Shown here: in pieces, positions 5,660 to 49,731 of the stretch
How the letters are laid out: each line of letters opens with the position of its first letter
Numbering within the stretch: the first letter of the stretch is position 1
Origin: Nocardia mikamii NBRC 108933
GTDB taxonomy: Bacteria > Actinomycetota > Actinomycetes > Mycobacteriales > Mycobacteriaceae
Assembly (NCBI RefSeq): GCF_001613505.1
Contig: NZ_BDCM01000025.1
Coordinates: 1 to 64,000, forward strand
Reading direction: 5' to 3'
Length of the DNA: 64,000 bases
Made by a program: the position numbers and the translations under genes
The notes under the pieces: model-generated
The model's input: only the letters and a program-made list of their open reading frames with translations
What the model was told of the DNA's origin: nothing
The model's database searches: none

Positions 5660-8128
5660 ATGGCATCGCGCCGACCGGAAATCGCGGCGGGCTCCGCCGA
5701 GGAGTTCATCGGCCGCCACCGAGAGCTGGACCACCTCGCCACCGCGTTGCTCGCGAGACGTCGGCTGATCACGGTTGTCGGGCCTGGCGGTATCGGCAAG
5801 ACGCGATTGGTCGCCGAGGCCGTGGATCGATTCCGCAGAGCCACTGAGGATCCGGTCCCGTGGGTTCGCCTGGCACGGCTTCCCAAGGGCGCGGACGCGA
5901 CCGTCGTGGCCGACGAGATCGTGCGCTCGGTGGTCGGCCACGACTTCTCCGGCCGCGCGTCCTGGGAGGCGCTGATCGAGACCTTGACCGACGGCTCCGT
6001 GCCCCAGCCGCTGGTGGTGATCGACAACTGTGAACATGTGCTTGCCGGGGCCGGTGCGGCCATCGCCGCCCTCCTCGACGCCGTACCCACCGTGACCGTG
6101 GTGGCGACGAGCCGGGGACGGATCGGCTGGGTCGATGAGCAAGTCCTGCGTGTCCCGCCGCTCGCCGATCACCAGGCGATCGAATTGTTCTGCCGCCGTG
6201 CCGAATTGACGGGCACGCCGGTCGCGGATACGGAGACGGTCCGATCGATATGCCGGCATCTGAACAATCAACCGCTGCATATCCGTCTGGCGGCGGCGCG
6301 CCTGTTCCGGCAGCCGCTGCGGGCGATCGCGCGCGATCTCACCGGTGAGCAGTCGGATCGTCGGCTGATGTGGTCGGCGGACCCGCAGTTCGGTGCCGAG
6401 GAACGGCATCGGGCGATCGGGGACGTGATCGCCTGGTCGTTCGACCTCTGCGGGGACGGTGAGCGACTGCTGCTGGAGCGGATGTCGGTGTTCGCCCCCG
6501 GCGGCGAACAGGGCAATTCCGATGTCGACGTGGTCGAGTCGGGGGCCGACCTCGATGCCGTCCGGACGATCTGCGGCGGTCCCGACGGTGCGGGCCTGGA
6601 TCTGCCTCCCGAACAGATCGAGGGTTTGCTGGAGCGATTGGCCGATCAGTCGCTGGTGTCCGTGCATCTCTCGGGCGACCGGGCACGCTACTCGCTCCTG
6701 GAGAGTATCCGGGTCTTCGCGCAGCAACGGGTCGCCGTGCGCGACGGCTGCGAGCCACAGCGTCTGGCCGCCCGACATCGTCGCTACTACCGCGACCGCG
6801 TATGTGCCGCTCGCACCGAGTGGTTCAGCCATCGGGAGCGCGAGCTCCTGGATTGGGCGAGCGCCTCGTGGGACGACCTGTTGTCGGCCGTCGAGGGCAG
6901 TATGGTCACTCCCGGCGAGGCGGTGGTCGGTCTGGAAATCGTCCACGGGATGATCGCATTGCGGGTGCCGTTCTTCCGGGGCTCGCTGCGCGATGCGCGG
7001 TGCTGGGCCAAGCAGGCAGTGGAAGCGACTCGCGACGCCGAGCCCGAAGCGAGCCGGTTGCGGCTGGCCACACGGGCGGCGGTGGCGTGGCTCTGCCTGT
7101 GTCAGGGACGACCCGATGACGCGTCGCGCATACTGCGCGAATGCGCCGCCGCCTGCTTGGCGGACGAGGACGCGCAGCGTGCCTGGCTCGCCGACCCGGT
7201 GCCGGATCGAGCGATGCCCGGGGCCGTCGAATTCGCGGCGGGATGCCACCTCATGCTCACGCACGCGGATGTGCGGGCGTTGGTCGTCCTTGCTCGGGCA
7301 CGCGACAAGTTCACCGCGGCAGGCGATTTCGGCAATGCCGCGATGAGCGAGTTGTTCGAGGCGCTCACCGCGGCCTTCCTGGGGAACCGCGACCAGGCTC
7401 GCACCATCACCCGTCGCCACCTCGACAACACGGCACGCGCACAGGGCGAGTGGGCGACATCCTGGGCGGAGATCGCGTGGATCATCGCGGAAACCAAATA
7501 CGGCGACGGACAACGGGCGATCGCGAGAGCACGCTCGACCCTGGCACGCCAGATTTCCATGCGCGACGCCTGGGGCGCGGTGTGGACGGTGCACGCACTC
7601 ATCTGGGCGTTGTCGCGGGCGCTGACCCCCGGCTCGGACGTATCGGCCACAGCCGCCGACACCGCGAAACTGGTGGGCGCCGCCGAAGCGTTGCGGCGCC
7701 GCCTCGGAGTCGAGATAGCCCATCTGCGCCCCTTCGCGACCGAGACCGCGCACGCGATCGAACGTATCCGAAAGGCGCTCGGCCCGAACCGATTCGAGGC
7801 GTTGCGGCAGGAGGGGACCACGCTGCGACCGCCCATGGCGCACGTTGCCCGGCTGGCTCGTGGCGAGGTGTCCCCGGAGGGACGCCGCGCGTCATCGGGT
7901 GGGGCGGCGCGGTCGTGGGATCACCTCACCCGCGCCGAGCAGGAGGTCGCGATCCTGGCGGCCGCAGGGTGGACCAACGCCGCCATCGCCACTCGCCGGG
8001 GCAGTTCCCGTCGCACCGTCGACGCGCACATCGCCGCTGTGCTGCGCAAACTGATGATCGACTCCCGCGAGGAGATCGCCGCCCTGATCCCACCGGGTCG
8101 CCGCGACCGGTCGCTCGCGCAGCGCTGA
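5660..8128 (+). CDS. Large ATP-binding LuxR-family transcriptional regulator
   Basis: An 822-residue regulator with an AAA/NB-ARC type ATPase and a C-terminal DNA-binding domain. The Walker A motif is GPGGIGKT (41-48), the Walker B region LVVIDNCEH (118-126), and the ATSRGRIG motif follows. A winged-helix region comes at about 240-330, then a long helical part typical of TPR-like sensor domains. The C-terminus (about 755-822) is a LuxR helix-turn-helix: HLTRAEQEVAILAAAGWTNAAIATRRGSSRRTVDAHIAAVLRKL. The start has GGGGGAG upstream. No target can be named; it is followed by the decayed gene at 8272. A large opposite-strand open frame here is only a shadow. Confidence 0.88.
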   Translation: MASRRPEIAAGSAEEFIGRHRELDHLATALLARRRLITVVGPGGIGKTRLVAEAVDRFRRATEDPVPWVRLARLPKGADATVVADEIVRSVVGHDFSGRASWEALIETLTDGSVPQPLVVIDNCEHVLAGAGAAIAALLDAVPTVTVVATSRGRIGWVDEQVLRVPPLADHQAIELFCRRAELTGTPVADTETVRSICRHLNNQPLHIRLAAARLFRQPLRAIARDLTGEQSDRRLMWSADPQFGAEERHRAIGDVIAWSFDLCGDGERLLLERMSVFAPGGEQGNSDVDVVESGADLDAVRTICGGPDGAGLDLPPEQIEGLLERLADQSLVSVHLSGDRARYSLLESIRVFAQQRVAVRDGCEPQRLAARHRRYYRDRVCAARTEWFSHRERELLDWASASWDDLLSAVEGSMVTPGEAVVGLEIVHGMIALRVPFFRGSLRDARCWAKQAVEATRDAEPEASRLRLATRAAVAWLCLCQGRPDDASRILRECAAACLADEDAQRAWLADPVPDRAMPGAVEFAAGCHLMLTHADVRALVVLARARDKFTAAGDFGNAAMSELFEALTAAFLGNRDQARTITRRHLDNTARAQGEWATSWAEIAWIIAETKYGDGQRAIARARSTLARQISMRDAWGAVWTVHALIWALSRALTPGSDVSATAADTAKLVGAAEALRRRLGVEIAHLRPFATETAHAIERIRKALGPNRFEALRQEGTTLRPPMAHVARLARGEVSPEGRRASSGGAARSWDHLTRAEQEVAILAAAGWTNAAIATRRGSSRRTVDAHIAAVLRKLMIDSREEIAALIPPGRRDRSLAQR

Positions 8129-44714: not shown

Positions 44715-45311
44715 TCAGGTCGTGGCTTGTACCCGGATCGGCTCACCGCCCGCGAGATCGCCTGCGGGATCGTCGATCTCGTAGTAGGGCGGCTCGCCGT
44801 CGAGGTAGTGGGCGACGTCGAAGTAGTCGTTGCCGGCCAGGTCGAGGGTGCCGGTGGTCCAGGCCAGCAGGAAGTCGGTGACCGGCATAGCGGTGAACAA
44901 CCACGCGGACTGGTGGACGTTGGTGAGGATGATCGTCCACACGGCCGGATCCGGTCCCGGATACCACAGCAGATAGTCCCCGCCCTCGTGAGCGCCCCAC
45001 TGGATCAGCTGTGCCGGTTCGATCGACACTCCGGCGGGCACCGCGGGCTGCCATTGCGGCAGTAATCGTTCCGGTGGCAGCAGGTCGCCACGGGCTCGGC
45101 GCGTGCGGGCGGCGAGATCGTCCCATTCGTCGGGCGCCGGGCCCAGCAGCCGGAATGCGTTGCACCACAGGACATCGCCGTAGGTGTCGTAGAGCCGCTT
45201 GTAGTCGGCCGGCAGCTCGACGCCGAGCTCGGCCTCGGTCTCCTCCCACGCCACCGGCGGCCGTGCCGGTGGCGGCGGGAGGAAGGTGGTGAGCTCGTCG
45301 AAGGCGGTCAT
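44715..45311 (-). CDS. SMI1/KNR4 (SUKH) family protein, probable immunity protein
   Basis: A 198-residue cytosolic protein. Its SUKH hallmarks are near the start: VAWEETEAELGVELPADYKRLYDTYGDVLWCNAFRLLGPAPDEWDDLA (the W-E-E-E-LG-LP-DYK-LY-YG pattern), and later WGAHEGGDYLLWYPGPDPAVWTIIL. SUKH proteins are well known as immunity proteins to nuclease toxins of polymorphic toxin systems, although some have other roles. It begins 13 bases after the stop of a secreted nuclease-like gene on the same strand, the usual toxin-then-immunity order. Protection of the producer from that nuclease is therefore the likely role. Confidence 0.8.
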   Translation of the reverse strand: MTAFDELTTFLPPPPARPPVAWEETEAELGVELPADYKRLYDTYGDVLWCNAFRLLGPAPDEWDDLAARTRRARGDLLPPERLLPQWQPAVPAGVSIEPAQLIQWGAHEGGDYLLWYPGPDPAVWTIILTNVHQSAWLFTAMPVTDFLLAWTTGTLDLAGNDYFDVAHYLDGEPPYYEIDDPAGDLAGGEPIRVQATT

Positions 45312-45324
45312 CGTCTCGATCCTG

Positions 45325-46644
45325 TCAGAAATTCTGGATCAGCACGGGCCCGGGATTCCATCCCTTGTCGCCGATGGCCCACATCAGGATGTAGTCGGGG
45401 ATGGCGTTGTCGCCGACGTAGAGCGGAATCTTGCCCAGCGAGACGTTCTGCTGCGGGATCCCGTCGGCAACTCTGGCACCGCTGACGACCTTGCTGATCT
45501 CGACGTCCCAGTCGCGAATGATGCCGGTGTTGATCGCGCCGAGTTCCGGAGTGAGGAACTGGGGCAGATCCCCCGGACAGCCGTTGACGTTGGCGCACAG
45601 GTGTCCCCGCTGGTACGGCCTGGTCGCACCGGGAATCTTGATCGAGGGGGAACCGCCCGTGCCGACCATGGCGGGGGTGATGTAGCCGACGAGGCCGCCG
45701 GAGCGGTTGTAGTCGTCCAGCGGTGCGGCCAGCACGTTGCCGCCGTCGCCGGCGACGAGGATGACCGGGGTCTGATCGGCGACCGGGTTGGTGCCGTCCG
45801 GATTCGGCAACGCGAACACCTGCGGCGTGGCGTTGCTCGGGCGCAGCACACCCTGGGCAGCCTGCTGGATCTGGAAGGCATTGGCGAAGAACTCCTGCTG
45901 CATGGCCGTCATATCCGGCGCCGGCCCGATCCCACCGGTGGCGCCGGGCGCCTGCAACGGATTCGCGGGCGCGGGCAGGACACGGAAGGCGTTGGGGCCG
46001 TTCACCATGCTGTTGGGCAGCAGCGCCGGCTGCACCGGAGCACCGCTACCGATCAACGTCGACGGACTGTAGGTGCCACCTTGCGGGATCGCGGGATTGC
46101 GGATGATCCGCGACAACGGCGGCAACGCCATCGCAGGGTTCGGTAGCGCCGGCGCGGTCGACGAGCGCGGCGCCAACGGCACCGACGGCGTGCGCGGCTT
46201 CGCCGGTGCCGGACTCGGCGCGGGCGCGGGCCCCGGTGCCGGGCTCGGCGGGCAGCTCGGGTTGGGCGCGGCCGCGGCGATGATCAGCGCGGCCGGGCAC
46301 GGTTGCGGCGCATCGGGTTTCGGCGGTGCACCGACCTGCGGAACGTCATGCCCCTCGGCCCGGCACTGCTCGGCCAGGCTCTGCAATTCCGGGATCTCGG
46401 CGTTGCCGCGTTCGGCCTCCGCGTTGTAGGCCGCGACCGCTGCCTCATCCGACGGATTCGGCGGATTCGCGTTGTGGACCGCGGCAGCCTGATTGTGTGC
46501 CTCGATCCGCGCAGCGACCGCCCCGCAGTCCAACGAATCGGCAGATCCTATCGGTGCCGCGACCACCAGCATCCCGAAGATGCCGAGGACGACAGCGAGG
46601 ACAGCTACTGTTTTGCTAACGAAACGTCCTGTAGAAGAAGACAT
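45325..46644 (-). CDS. Secreted protein with C-terminal DNA/RNA non-specific endonuclease-like domain
   Basis: A 439-residue protein. Signal peptide: TGRFVSKTVAVLAVVLGIFGMLVVAAPIGSADS. A cysteine-bounded helical domain (about 38-105) carries RIEAHNQAAAVHNANPPNPS and AVAAYNAEAERGNAEI. A proline/alanine linker (about 110-200) and a long spacer follow. The C-terminal domain (about 290-439) has YQRGHLCANVNGCPGDLPQF, then LTPELGAINTGIIRDWDVEI, IPLYVGDNAIPDYILMWAIG. This follows the Endonuclea_NS_2 pattern (GHL with catalytic His348, an NxG-x-R-x-E segment, then a YxG...P strand). The ATG at 46644 follows GGGGGG; an ATG six codons earlier is weaker. Assignment of the nuclease fold is by pattern, not alignment. 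Confidence 0.65.
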   Translation of the reverse strand: MSSSTGRFVSKTVAVLAVVLGIFGMLVVAAPIGSADSLDCGAVAARIEAHNQAAAVHNANPPNPSDEAAVAAYNAEAERGNAEIPELQSLAEQCRAEGHDVPQVGAPPKPDAPQPCPAALIIAAAAPNPSCPPSPAPGPAPAPSPAPAKPRTPSVPLAPRSSTAPALPNPAMALPPLSRIIRNPAIPQGGTYSPSTLIGSGAPVQPALLPNSMVNGPNAFRVLPAPANPLQAPGATGGIGPAPDMTAMQQEFFANAFQIQQAAQGVLRPSNATPQVFALPNPDGTNPVADQTPVILVAGDGGNVLAAPLDDYNRSGGLVGYITPAMVGTGGSPSIKIPGATRPYQRGHLCANVNGCPGDLPQFLTPELGAINTGIIRDWDVEISKVVSGARVADGIPQQNVSLGKIPLYVGDNAIPDYILMWAIGDKGWNPGPVLIQNF

Positions 46645-47197
46645 TTCACCCCCCAAGTTCATGTCGGTTCGAAACTAACGTCACCGCCTTCGATCGGTCA
46701 AGAGTGACCGCCGCCACTGAAGGCCACCGACGCGATCGGAGCGAAACGGCCGTCGGGATCGAGACGCGGCCGCGAAGTCATGCCGGTATCGTTCGCCGTG
46801 GCCGCAGCGGGATGTGATCACGGAACACTTCGATGGCGGCGGCGACTTCGACCGGTGTTGTCGCGTGGGCGATGTCGTGGCGCTAGCGAACGCGGTTCGC
46901 GACCACGTCGAGGTCGAATCCCCAGACCATCCGCATTCGCCGCGGACGGCGTCGGTGATCGACGCGCAGACGATGCTCTCCCGGCCGGGAGTACGGCGCT
47001 GGACCCAAGGGCGACGGCGTCGAGCCATGCGTCAGTGGCTGCCATGACAGGCAGGAGCCCCCGCCTCAAATTCTGAAACGCGTCCGCTTCGAGCGGCCAG
47101 CGTCCGACCGCTCCCGATGAAATACTGGTACCGGGTATCGCCAACTGTCGGCGACACTTTCGGATCGGCTGATGCCGCTCTTGGTTGGGAGACGTTC
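46645..47197. other. About 550 bases without a supported gene
   Basis: This covers the divergent upstream regions of the nuclease and terpene synthase genes. On the minus strand, 46778-46936 reads as a protein-like 52-codon frame broken by one TAG after 17 codons (MRMVWGFDLDVVANRVR, stop, RHDIAHATTPVEVAAAIEVF). It may be a worn fragment. No strong promoter pair was found. Confidence 0.35.
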
Positions 47198-48298
47198 GTG
47201 CAGTACATGCCTCATATCGAATCGGATATCGCCGCCATGCACACCGAATACCAGTCACTTCTGCACGGGGATCGATGGTCGTTGCGCGCCCTGTTCAGCA
47301 CCGACGACTGCGATATCGCCGAATACTGCGGCACTTTCGCGCCGAACCGGTTCGGCGCCGAGGCGTGCGAGGCGGTCGAGACGTTCTGCCGCAGACACCG
47401 GATCTGGCTGGAAAGCGGTGGTGCCGCCTACAATTCGATGACACCCTACCTGCATCCGCGCACGATAGACCTACCGCGGATGACGACGATCGGTATCTAC
47501 AACGCGATCTTGTTCGCACTCAACGACACGGTGGGCCGGGAGAAGTTCAGCCATCTGTCCGAGGACGAACGCGCACAGGCGCAGCGGGAGGTCGACCATC
47601 TGTGTCGATTATTCGAGTCCGGCCGGATCCGGCCGGACACCACCACCCCCATCATCGAGGCGAGCCTCGAATTCTTGACGATCCTCACCGAACAAGCCGA
47701 GCCCGTGTGGTTGCAGCGATTCCGCGCATCGACGATCGACCACCTGCGCACGGCGATCCGCGACCAGAACGTCGGCGCGCGCGGTGACCTGCTCAGCGTC
47801 GACGACTACATCGCCCTGCGTAACGAAGTTTCCGGGATGTACCCCGCGATCCAGCTGTGCGAGTTCGCGCGCGACACCACCCTGCCCTGGGATCGGCTCG
47901 CCGCCGCCGGCCTCGCCGAGGACCTGCGCACGCTGGAACGCCTGACCGCCGAAGTCGGCGCCCTGATGAACGATGTCTTCTCCTTCGAGAAGGAGGTCAT
48001 CGTGGACCGATCCGATTTCAATCTCATATCGATTCTGCTGCTCAATACGCCCGGCGCGACACTGGCCGACGCCGTACTCGGCGCCGCGCAGATCGTGCGC
48101 GAGCGATTCACACACTTCCGCGGGCTGCGTCGAGACCTGCTCGATCGCTGCGCCGCACTCGGTCCACCGCTGGCCACCGCCGTCACCGCCTACGCCGACG
48201 ACCTCGACCAATGCGTGCAAGCGAGCTGGGTGTGGCAATGCGCCACCTCGCGCTACAAGGGCCGGTCGATATTCGCCGAGGCCCACACACAGAGGTAG
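47198..48298 (+). CDS. Class I terpene synthase
   Basis: A 366-residue cyclase of the bacterial terpene synthase group. The metal-binding NSE triad is intact: NDVFSFEKE (258-266). The Asp-rich motif that usually reads DDxxxE is LNDTVGRE (108-115), so the first aspartate is asparagine. The C-terminal SRYKG resembles the RY pair that closes over the diphosphate. It cyclises a prenyl diphosphate, probably farnesyl or geranyl, to a hydrocarbon or alcohol. The GTG at 47198 has GGGAG six bases before; a start 27 codons earlier gives an unlikely N-terminus. No P450 or prenyltransferase is adjacent. The altered motif does not exclude activity. Confidence 0.85.
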   Translation: MQYMPHIESDIAAMHTEYQSLLHGDRWSLRALFSTDDCDIAEYCGTFAPNRFGAEACEAVETFCRRHRIWLESGGAAYNSMTPYLHPRTIDLPRMTTIGIYNAILFALNDTVGREKFSHLSEDERAQAQREVDHLCRLFESGRIRPDTTTPIIEASLEFLTILTEQAEPVWLQRFRASTIDHLRTAIRDQNVGARGDLLSVDDYIALRNEVSGMYPAIQLCEFARDTTLPWDRLAAAGLAEDLRTLERLTAEVGALMNDVFSFEKEVIVDRSDFNLISILLLNTPGATLADAVLGAAQIVRERFTHFRGLRRDLLDRCAALGPPLATAVTAYADDLDQCVQASWVWQCATSRYKGRSIFAEAHTQR

Positions 48299-48429: not shown

Positions 48430-49731
48430 GTGGATGATCTGAGCACAGCACTCGCCCAGCAATGGGAGCGCGCGCTCGCGACGATCACCGCCCACCCTTC
48501 CTACGCCAATGTAGAAATTTCGTTTCTGCGCGATCTACTGGAAGAACTTCACGCGAGTCTCACCGCGGAGGACTTCGACGCGGCCGCCGGATCCCGAGCA
48601 GGAGCGGCGCTGGCGGGTGCCCGGCTCACCGATCCGGCGGTCCCGGTCGTGTCCGCCCCGGTACTGCACAGACTCACGGAATTCAGCGATCACCCCGACA
48701 CCGGCCGGCGGATGGCCACCCTGCTCGTCGCGTTCGGCCACGGCCACCACTTCCTGGCCGAAGCGATCCGGGCCGACGATGTCGAGGAAGGCCAGCGCCG
48801 GTTCCGGCTCGTGTTCGACCATGCCTCCATCGCCATCGCTATCGGCGACACCAACGGTGTGCTGCTGGAAGCCAATCCGCATCTGGCCGACATGATCGGC
48901 GTACCGGTCGACTCGCTACGCGGAATCAGCGTCTACGACTTCGCCCACCCCGACGACCAGGCCGCGATCCGCCAGATGGTCTACGACGACCTCGTACCGG
49001 CCAGGGCGGGTACCGCGAAGATCGAACGGCGTCTGCAGCGCGCGGACGGCAGCACCGGATGGGCCACATTCGCGATCACCTATGTCCGGAGCGCCTTCGG
49101 GCCGGACTATCTGCTCGCCATCGGGGAGGACGTCACCGAACGCCACCAACTGCAGGAGCAGCTCCATTACCAGGCGCGCCACGACGCGCTCACCGAGCTG
49201 CCCAACCGCCGCCACCTGCTCGACACGCTCAGAGCAGTGATCTCCACGGCCGGCGAGAACGATCTGATGGGGTTGTGCTTCACCGACCTGGACCACTTCA
49301 AAGAGGTCAACGACCGATACGGTCACGGCGTCGGCGATCAAGTGCTGGCCACCGTCGCTCGTCGGCTGCACGACAGCCTGCAGGACGACGGATGCCTGGT
49401 CGCACGGATCGGCGGCGACGAGTTCGTCACCCTCATTCCGCCCCCGGCCGACACCCGACGGGTCTCCGCCGTGGCGGATCGCCTCCGCGGCGCACTGTCG
49501 CATCCCCTCATCGTCGGCGGGCACCGGCTCCACATTTCCGCCAGCATCGGCGCCGTCGTCACTCCGGTCGCCGGCAAGGACCCCGAATGGCTGCTCGACG
49601 CGGCCGACACCTCGCTGTACGACGCCAAGTCCGGCGCCCGCGGCAACTGGATCCTGCACACCGTCCACGCCGCCGAGCCCGCCGGCGAGAGCTTCGACAG
49701 CGATTATCCGGCGGCAGGCAACACTCGGTAG
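48430..49731 (+). CDS. PAS-GGDEF protein, probable diguanylate cyclase
   Basis: A 433-residue signalling protein. Residues 1-120 are helical without a known domain. A PAS domain at about 125-240 contains RFRLVFDHASIAIAIGDTNGVLLEANPHLADMIGVPVDSLRGISVYDFAHPDD with a PAC segment YLLAIGEDVTERHQLQEQL. The GGDEF domain follows (HDALTELPNRRHLLDTL through DHFKEVNDRYGHGVGDQVL to ARIGGDEFVTLIPP), with GGDEF intact and therefore likely active in making cyclic di-GMP. No EAL domain and no membrane segment. The GTG start follows GGGGAG. It is convergent with and overlaps the RibD-like gene by 28 bases. Confidence 0.9.
   Translation: MDDLSTALAQQWERALATITAHPSYANVEISFLRDLLEELHASLTAEDFDAAAGSRAGAALAGARLTDPAVPVVSAPVLHRLTEFSDHPDTGRRMATLLVAFGHGHHFLAEAIRADDVEEGQRRFRLVFDHASIAIAIGDTNGVLLEANPHLADMIGVPVDSLRGISVYDFAHPDDQAAIRQMVYDDLVPARAGTAKIERRLQRADGSTGWATFAITYVRSAFGPDYLLAIGEDVTERHQLQEQLHYQARHDALTELPNRRHLLDTLRAVISTAGENDLMGLCFTDLDHFKEVNDRYGHGVGDQVLATVARRLHDSLQDDGCLVARIGGDEFVTLIPPPADTRRVSAVADRLRGALSHPLIVGGHRLHISASIGAVVTPVAGKDPEWLLDAADTSLYDAKSGARGNWILHTVHAAEPAGESFDSDYPAAGNTR

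What the first reader, a model, noticed from the sequence alone, without database searches (positions are those of the whole stretch)
44715..46644. Secreted nuclease with adjacent SUKH immunity-type protein
A Sec-exported 439-residue protein ends in a domain with GHL, an NxG...R...E segment and a YxG..P strand, the pattern of DNA/RNA non-specific endonucleases. It is followed 13 bases later by a SUKH (SMI1/KNR4) protein. SUKH proteins commonly protect against toxin nucleases (established for polymorphic toxin systems). The N-terminal cysteine-bounded helical domain and Pro/Ala linker suggest a modular exported toxin without RHS or ESX parts. If right, this is a simple Sec-dependent toxin/immunity pair in a mycolic-acid actinomycete.
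Basis: partly seen in the sequence, partly recalled or inferred. Interest (0 to 1): 0.7.

Follow-up and report, generated by a model that had tools for sequence, protein, structure and literature searches.

The report
Secreted nuclease toxin with immunity partner
A Nocardia genome carries a gene for an exported DNA/RNA-cutting toxin followed at once by its probable antidote, and related Nocardia reuse the same export end with other toxin and antidote pairs, so it is probably a weapon against competing bacteria that uses a toxin front end with no name in the libraries searched.

Summary
Window 45325-46644 (-) encodes a 439-residue Sec-signal protein; 13 bases later lies a 198-residue SUKH-fold protein (44715-45311, -). 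The window nuclease has no Pfam hit, but its closest relatives (44-45% identical over the C-terminal domain) match Endonuclea_NS_2 above Pfam's cut-off, and the RGH...N...D/E active-site pattern is kept. Ten such nuclease loci were found in seven Nocardia genomes, including a second pair in the same genome; all ten have the SUKH gene directly downstream. The catalytic domain is under strong purifying selection (dN/dS about 0.05).

The main new result: the N-terminal signal peptide plus Cys-bounded "HN...YN" helical segment recurs with different C-termini and different neighbours: a restriction-endonuclease-like toxin with Imm49 (three loci), and an HNH-like domain with other partners (three loci). 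The same segment precedes a barnase toxin in a PPE protein followed by two barstars. A constant front end, with toxin and partner switching together, is the signature of a polymorphic toxin system.

Toxicity, binding and delivery are untested. New variant of a known kind.

The parts
45325..46644 (-). secreted nuclease-type toxin, 439 aa
   Evidence: open frame; GGGGGG ribosome-binding-like site 4 bases before the ATG; relatives match PF13930
46540..46644 (-). Sec-type signal peptide, residues 1-35 (R7, K11, hydrophobic core, ...GSA|D)
   Evidence: read from sequence; conserved as a hydrophobic start in relatives; no signal-peptide program available
46339..46530 (-). Cys-bounded (C40, C94) HN...YNAEA helical segment, residues 39-102: shared N-terminal module
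   Evidence: alignments A4-A6; genome searches; shuffle control
45913..46338 (-). Pro/Ala-rich linker, residues 103-244
   Evidence: sequence; alignment A1
45328..45912 (-). C-terminal Endonuclea_NS_2-type domain, residues 245-439
   Evidence: alignment A3, Pfam on relatives, profile comparison, dN/dS 0.04-0.06
45601..45603 (-). codon of His348, predicted catalytic general base
   Evidence: invariant in alignment with independent NS_2 proteins
45312..45324 (-). 13-base gap between toxin stop and SUKH start, consistent with co-transcription
44715..45311 (-). SUKH (SMI1/KNR4) fold immunity candidate, 198 aa
   Evidence: Pfam, Foldseek, adjacent in all ten nuclease loci

Best explanation
A two-gene polymorphic toxin/immunity cassette. 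The first gene makes a protein that is exported by Sec, carries a short, probably disulfide-bounded helical module and a Pro/Ala linker, and ends in a metal-dependent His-Me (NS_2/NucA-type) nuclease that would cut nucleic acid in a competing, probably related, bacterium. The second gene, translated right after it, makes a cytoplasmic SUKH protein that would bind the nuclease domain and protect the producer and its kin. Shown here: gene order, family assignments, conservation, purifying selection, reuse of the N-terminal module with other toxin and immunity pairs. Inferred: export, nuclease activity, toxicity, binding by SUKH, and entry into target cells by an unknown route.
For: Nuclease: relatives match Endonuclea_NS_2 above the curated cut-off (8.6e-8, 7.8e-8, 2.4e-7); the family search in whole genomes finds the paralog in this genome over the cut-off; hhalign of the family against independent NS_2 proteins gives E 5e-4 (probability 31%) with GHL and the Asn aligned; catalytic domain dN/dS 0.04-0.06 among three species. 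Immunity: SUKH fold; a SUKH gene follows in 10 of 10 nuclease loci in seven genomes, including a second, 50%-diverged pair in the same genome. Polymorphic toxin: a profile of the N-terminal module made only from nuclease proteins finds it in proteins with a REase-like C-terminus followed by Imm49 and with an HNH-like C-terminus and other partners; a broader profile adds two more REase-like/Imm49 loci (Imm49 E 4e-43, 9.6e-39, 3.6e-36). The core without signal peptide, trained on nuclease proteins alone, ranks seven of eight such proteins above all 20,000 shuffled sequences. SUKH as partner of Tox-NucA and Imm49 as partner of Tox-REase-1/-6 are listed in PMC3482391.
Against: The window's own copy has no Pfam hit, has Asp380 for the usual Glu, and family members have Gln362 where other NS_2 proteins have Asn. 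The structure model of the nuclease failed (mean pLDDT 38). The SUKH Pfam score is just below the cut-off. No toxicity, binding or secretion data; no dedicated delivery genes next to it; how a Sec-exported protein would cross a target's mycolate envelope is unknown.
Confidence: 0.8

Rival explanations
1. A secreted scavenging or defensive nuclease (for phosphate, nucleotides or extracellular DNA), with the SUKH protein as an intracellular safety inhibitor rather than part of a weapon.
For: Exported NS-type nucleases with intracellular inhibitors exist (own knowledge, e.g. NucA/NuiA of Anabaena); strong purifying selection and little diversity of the catalytic domain within orthologs fits a housekeeping enzyme as well.
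Against: Patchy presence (8 of 88 and 11 of 108 sampled Nocardia genomes hold the N-terminal module); the same N-terminal part is joined to unrelated toxin-like domains with Imm49, which a scavenging enzyme would not explain.
Confidence: 0.12
2. The nuclease domain is inactive or degenerate in the window copy; the SUKH gene is a relic or serves as orphan immunity.
For: No Pfam hit; Glu to Asp at position 380; two extra cysteines around the active site (C350, C356).
Against: His, metal-binding Asn and Arg invariant; dN/dS about 0.05 across three species; intact frame and ribosome-binding site. The only apparent frameshift is in another copy (L005).
Confidence: 0.05
3. The SUKH neighbour is a chance or regulatory neighbour, not an immunity protein.
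For: SUKH proteins have non-immunity roles in eukaryotes (Smi1/Knr4; own knowledge).
Against: Adjacent in 10 of 10 loci, in two diverged paralog lines whose SUKH partners diverged to the same degree as the toxins (about 50% each); only two close SUKH proteins in the genome and both sit behind these nucleases.
Confidence: 0.03

Closest known systems
Tox-NucA with Imm-SUKH (polymorphic toxin systems, Zhang et al. 2012, PMC3482391)
   Same: NS_2/NucA-type nuclease at the C-terminus, SUKH partner gene immediately downstream, export signal
   Different: N-terminal module is not among the Sec-route leaders listed there (MafB-N, MicroscillaN, APD1, APD2, inactive transglutaminase); no repeats, HINT or peptidase domain found by Pfam
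Endonuclea_NS_2 (PF13930)
   Same: relatives score above the cut-off; GH...N...E pattern
   Different: window copy below detection; Asn to Gln at 362, Glu to Asp at 380
YobL/YobK-type LXG toxin and SUKH immunity of Bacillus subtilis (own knowledge; YobK is structure 2prv, found)
   Same: nuclease toxin plus SUKH-fold partner
   Different: LXG/type VII export there, Sec signal here
PPE-barnase/barstar locus of a same-family relative (L044)
   Same: carries the same HN...YN segment just before its toxin domain
   Different: PPE/ESX leader, barnase toxin, barstar partners

Membership tests
Endonuclea_NS_2 / Tox-NucA nuclease | profile match over the curated cut-off | tested here: inconclusive
   window protein: no hit; relatives 44-45% identical over the domain: 31.5-33.5 bits against a cut-off of 27
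Endonuclea_NS_2 / Tox-NucA nuclease | catalytic GH, metal-binding Asn, acidic residue at +8 | tested here: met
   G347 H348 and N372 invariant; +8 is Glu in paralogs, Asp380 in the window clade; a further conserved Asn is replaced by Gln362
Endonuclea_NS_2 / Tox-NucA nuclease | beta-beta-alpha metal (His-Me) fold | tested here: inconclusive
   model confidence too low (pLDDT 38)
SUKH (SMI1/KNR4) superfamily | SUKH fold | tested here: met
   SMI1_KNR4 4.6e-5 (0.9 bit under the cut-off); Foldseek top hits are SMI1/KNR4 folds, best E 0.017, from a model of pLDDT 65.6
Polymorphic toxin system | conserved N-terminal export part joined to varied C-terminal toxins | tested here: met
   three C-terminal types behind the same signal peptide plus Cys-bounded module
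Polymorphic toxin system | immunity gene directly downstream, changing with the toxin | tested here: met
   SUKH with NS_2 (10 loci), Imm49 with REase-like (3 loci), other proteins with HNH-like (3 loci)
Polymorphic toxin system | toxicity neutralised by the partner | not testable with these tools
   needs bench work
ESX/LXG/WXG, RHS or PPE toxin | WXG, LXG, PPE or RHS region in the toxin | tested here: not met
   no such Pfam match in the window protein or its relatives

The most novel reading that the evidence does not exclude
The HN...YN helical segment is a so far unnamed pre-toxin or delivery module of Mycobacteriales, shared between Sec-exported toxins (NS_2, REase-like, HNH-like) and ESX-type PPE or DUF4226 proteins, and it is the part that lets these toxins pass or attach to the mycolate envelope of producer or target.
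Probability: 0.3. Interest if true: 0.75.

Novelty: new variant of a known kind. Interest (0 to 1): 0.55.

Why it matters
Antibacterial protein weapons of mycolic-acid bacteria are poorly known, and most attention goes to type VII export. This gives a compact, testable Sec-route toxin/immunity pair in Nocardia and a shared front end that can be used to find more toxin and immunity pairs. Whether that front end is a delivery module is directly testable.

Tried and rejected
AlphaFold model of the nuclease domain from seven sequences: pLDDT 38, not used for a fold search. Profile search of solved structures with the nuclease, SUKH and HNH-like alignments: no meaningful hit. Plasmid and phage records, PHROGs and IMG/VR: no relatives, so no sign of mobile carriage. 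N-terminal module search in the wider class: nothing beyond this genome at E 1e-4. The WXG-like protein in L045 was dropped as a weak match. An empty site could not be shown: among 59 Nocardia genomes, near-identical copies of the flanking amidase occur only in the two species that also have the pair. Two genome searches failed on the server.

Full report
What is there. On the minus strand, window 45325-46644 encodes 439 residues and 44715-45311 encodes 198 residues, 13 bases apart. A start at 46644 is favoured by GGGGGG four bases before the ATG; the open frame also allows 46662. The first protein has a Sec-type signal peptide (read by eye; no predictor was available), a Cys-bounded segment (C40-C94), a Pro/Ala linker and a C-terminal domain. 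The organism is a Nocardia near N. aobensis and N. cerradoensis.

Nuclease. The window protein has no Pfam or NCBIfam match. Relatives do: the paralog in the same genome (G000:C30, 50% identical) and proteins of other Nocardia match Endonuclea_NS_2 at 31.5-33.5 bits, over the cut-off of 27. In the alignment R346-G347-H348-L349, N352, N372 and R377 are invariant. Against independent NS_2 proteins fetched from a relative's genome, GH and N372 stay invariant, the residue eight after N372 is Glu in the paralogs and Asp in the window clade, and one commonly conserved Asn is Gln362. Profile-profile comparison gives E 5e-4, probability 31%. dN/dS of the catalytic domain is 0.04-0.06 among the window and its two 96% orthologs, and 0.06-0.10 within the paralog group; SUKH is looser (0.15-0.29). 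So the domain is kept by selection.

SUKH. Pfam scores fall just under cut-offs, but the model (pLDDT 65.6, pTM 0.69) retrieves mostly SMI1/KNR4 folds from the PDB among its top 21 matches, with E-values of 0.017 and above. Every nuclease locus has this SUKH gene directly downstream: window, L002, L003, L004, L005, L006, L007, L012, L029, L077, ten loci in seven genomes, gaps 13-27 bp where measured. Only two close copies of this SUKH exist in the genome and both sit behind the two nucleases.

The front end is reused. A profile of the N-terminal 105 residues found two other kinds of protein in Nocardia. L030, and later L078 and L079, have the same signal peptide and Cys-bounded segment joined to a C-terminus with D...ExK...Q...Y, the motif set described for Tox-REase-1/-6, followed after 0-7 bases by Imm49 (4e-43, 9.6e-39, 3.6e-36). 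L031 and L032 have an HNH-like C-terminus (SLDHVV...N...NRxK; a reading by eye, no library match) followed, with a one-base overlap, by an unknown 227-residue protein; L042, from another family of the order, has the same HNH-like domain with a different partner. In L044 the segment lies between a PPE domain and a barnase domain (4.4e-14), followed by two barstar genes, and in L043 it ends a DUF4226 protein next to what look like ESX genes. With the signal peptide removed and the profile trained only on the NS_2 proteins, seven of these eight proteins outrank all 20,000 shuffled sequences; L079 does not. The scores of L032 and L044 in that test are modest (E 0.006-0.009) and stronger in the genome searches.

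Interpretation. A constant export part, with toxin domain and neighbouring gene changing together and matching toxin-immunity partnerships listed in the literature (PMC3482391: Tox-NucA with SUKH, Tox-REase-1/-6 with Imm49), is what defines a polymorphic toxin system. The Sec-route leaders named in that survey's table do not include this segment, and Pfam gave no family for it. Export by Sec, cleavage of target nucleic acid and neutralisation by SUKH are inferred; how the toxin enters a target cell is unknown.

Distribution. The N-terminal module is patchy: 8 of 88 and 11 of 108 sampled Nocardia genomes, 4 others in a sample of 131 genomes of the order (one of them the weak L045), none beyond this genome in a class-wide sample of 138. 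No relatives were found in plasmid, phage or viral collections.

Noticed in passing
L005 about 7121-7125 (N. aobensis): The paralogous nuclease copy of N. aobensis has an apparent frameshift within the catalytic domain (two tblastn pieces), although its SUKH gene is intact; could be a draft-assembly error or an orphan immunity gene.
   Followed up: no
L044 2153-5453 (-): A PPE protein ending in a barnase domain, with two barstar genes directly downstream: a PPE-type RNase toxin with duplicated immunity genes.
   Followed up: partly
L031 1985-2668, L032 1281-1964: A 227-residue family without Pfam match follows HNH-like toxins with a one-base overlap: candidate new immunity family.
   Followed up: partly
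L030 3308-4242, L079 2955-3389, L031 516-1016: Small membrane or lipoprotein genes sit next to several of these toxin genes on the upstream side (NTF2-like by eye, no Pfam support); role unknown.
   Followed up: no
L007 5355-5786 (-) and L005 5115-6041 (-): A conserved small protein (MSATLALTA..DQLT.RTAAYGAVSLL) is encoded divergently upstream of the paralogous nuclease pair but not of the window pair.
   Followed up: no
window 47117-48298 (+): Terpene synthase (PF19086, 2.2e-22) next to the pair, followed by a PAS-GGDEF protein (48430-49731).
   Followed up: no
window 45577-45597: C350 and C356 lie just after the active-site histidine only in the window clade; possibly a disulfide.
   Followed up: no
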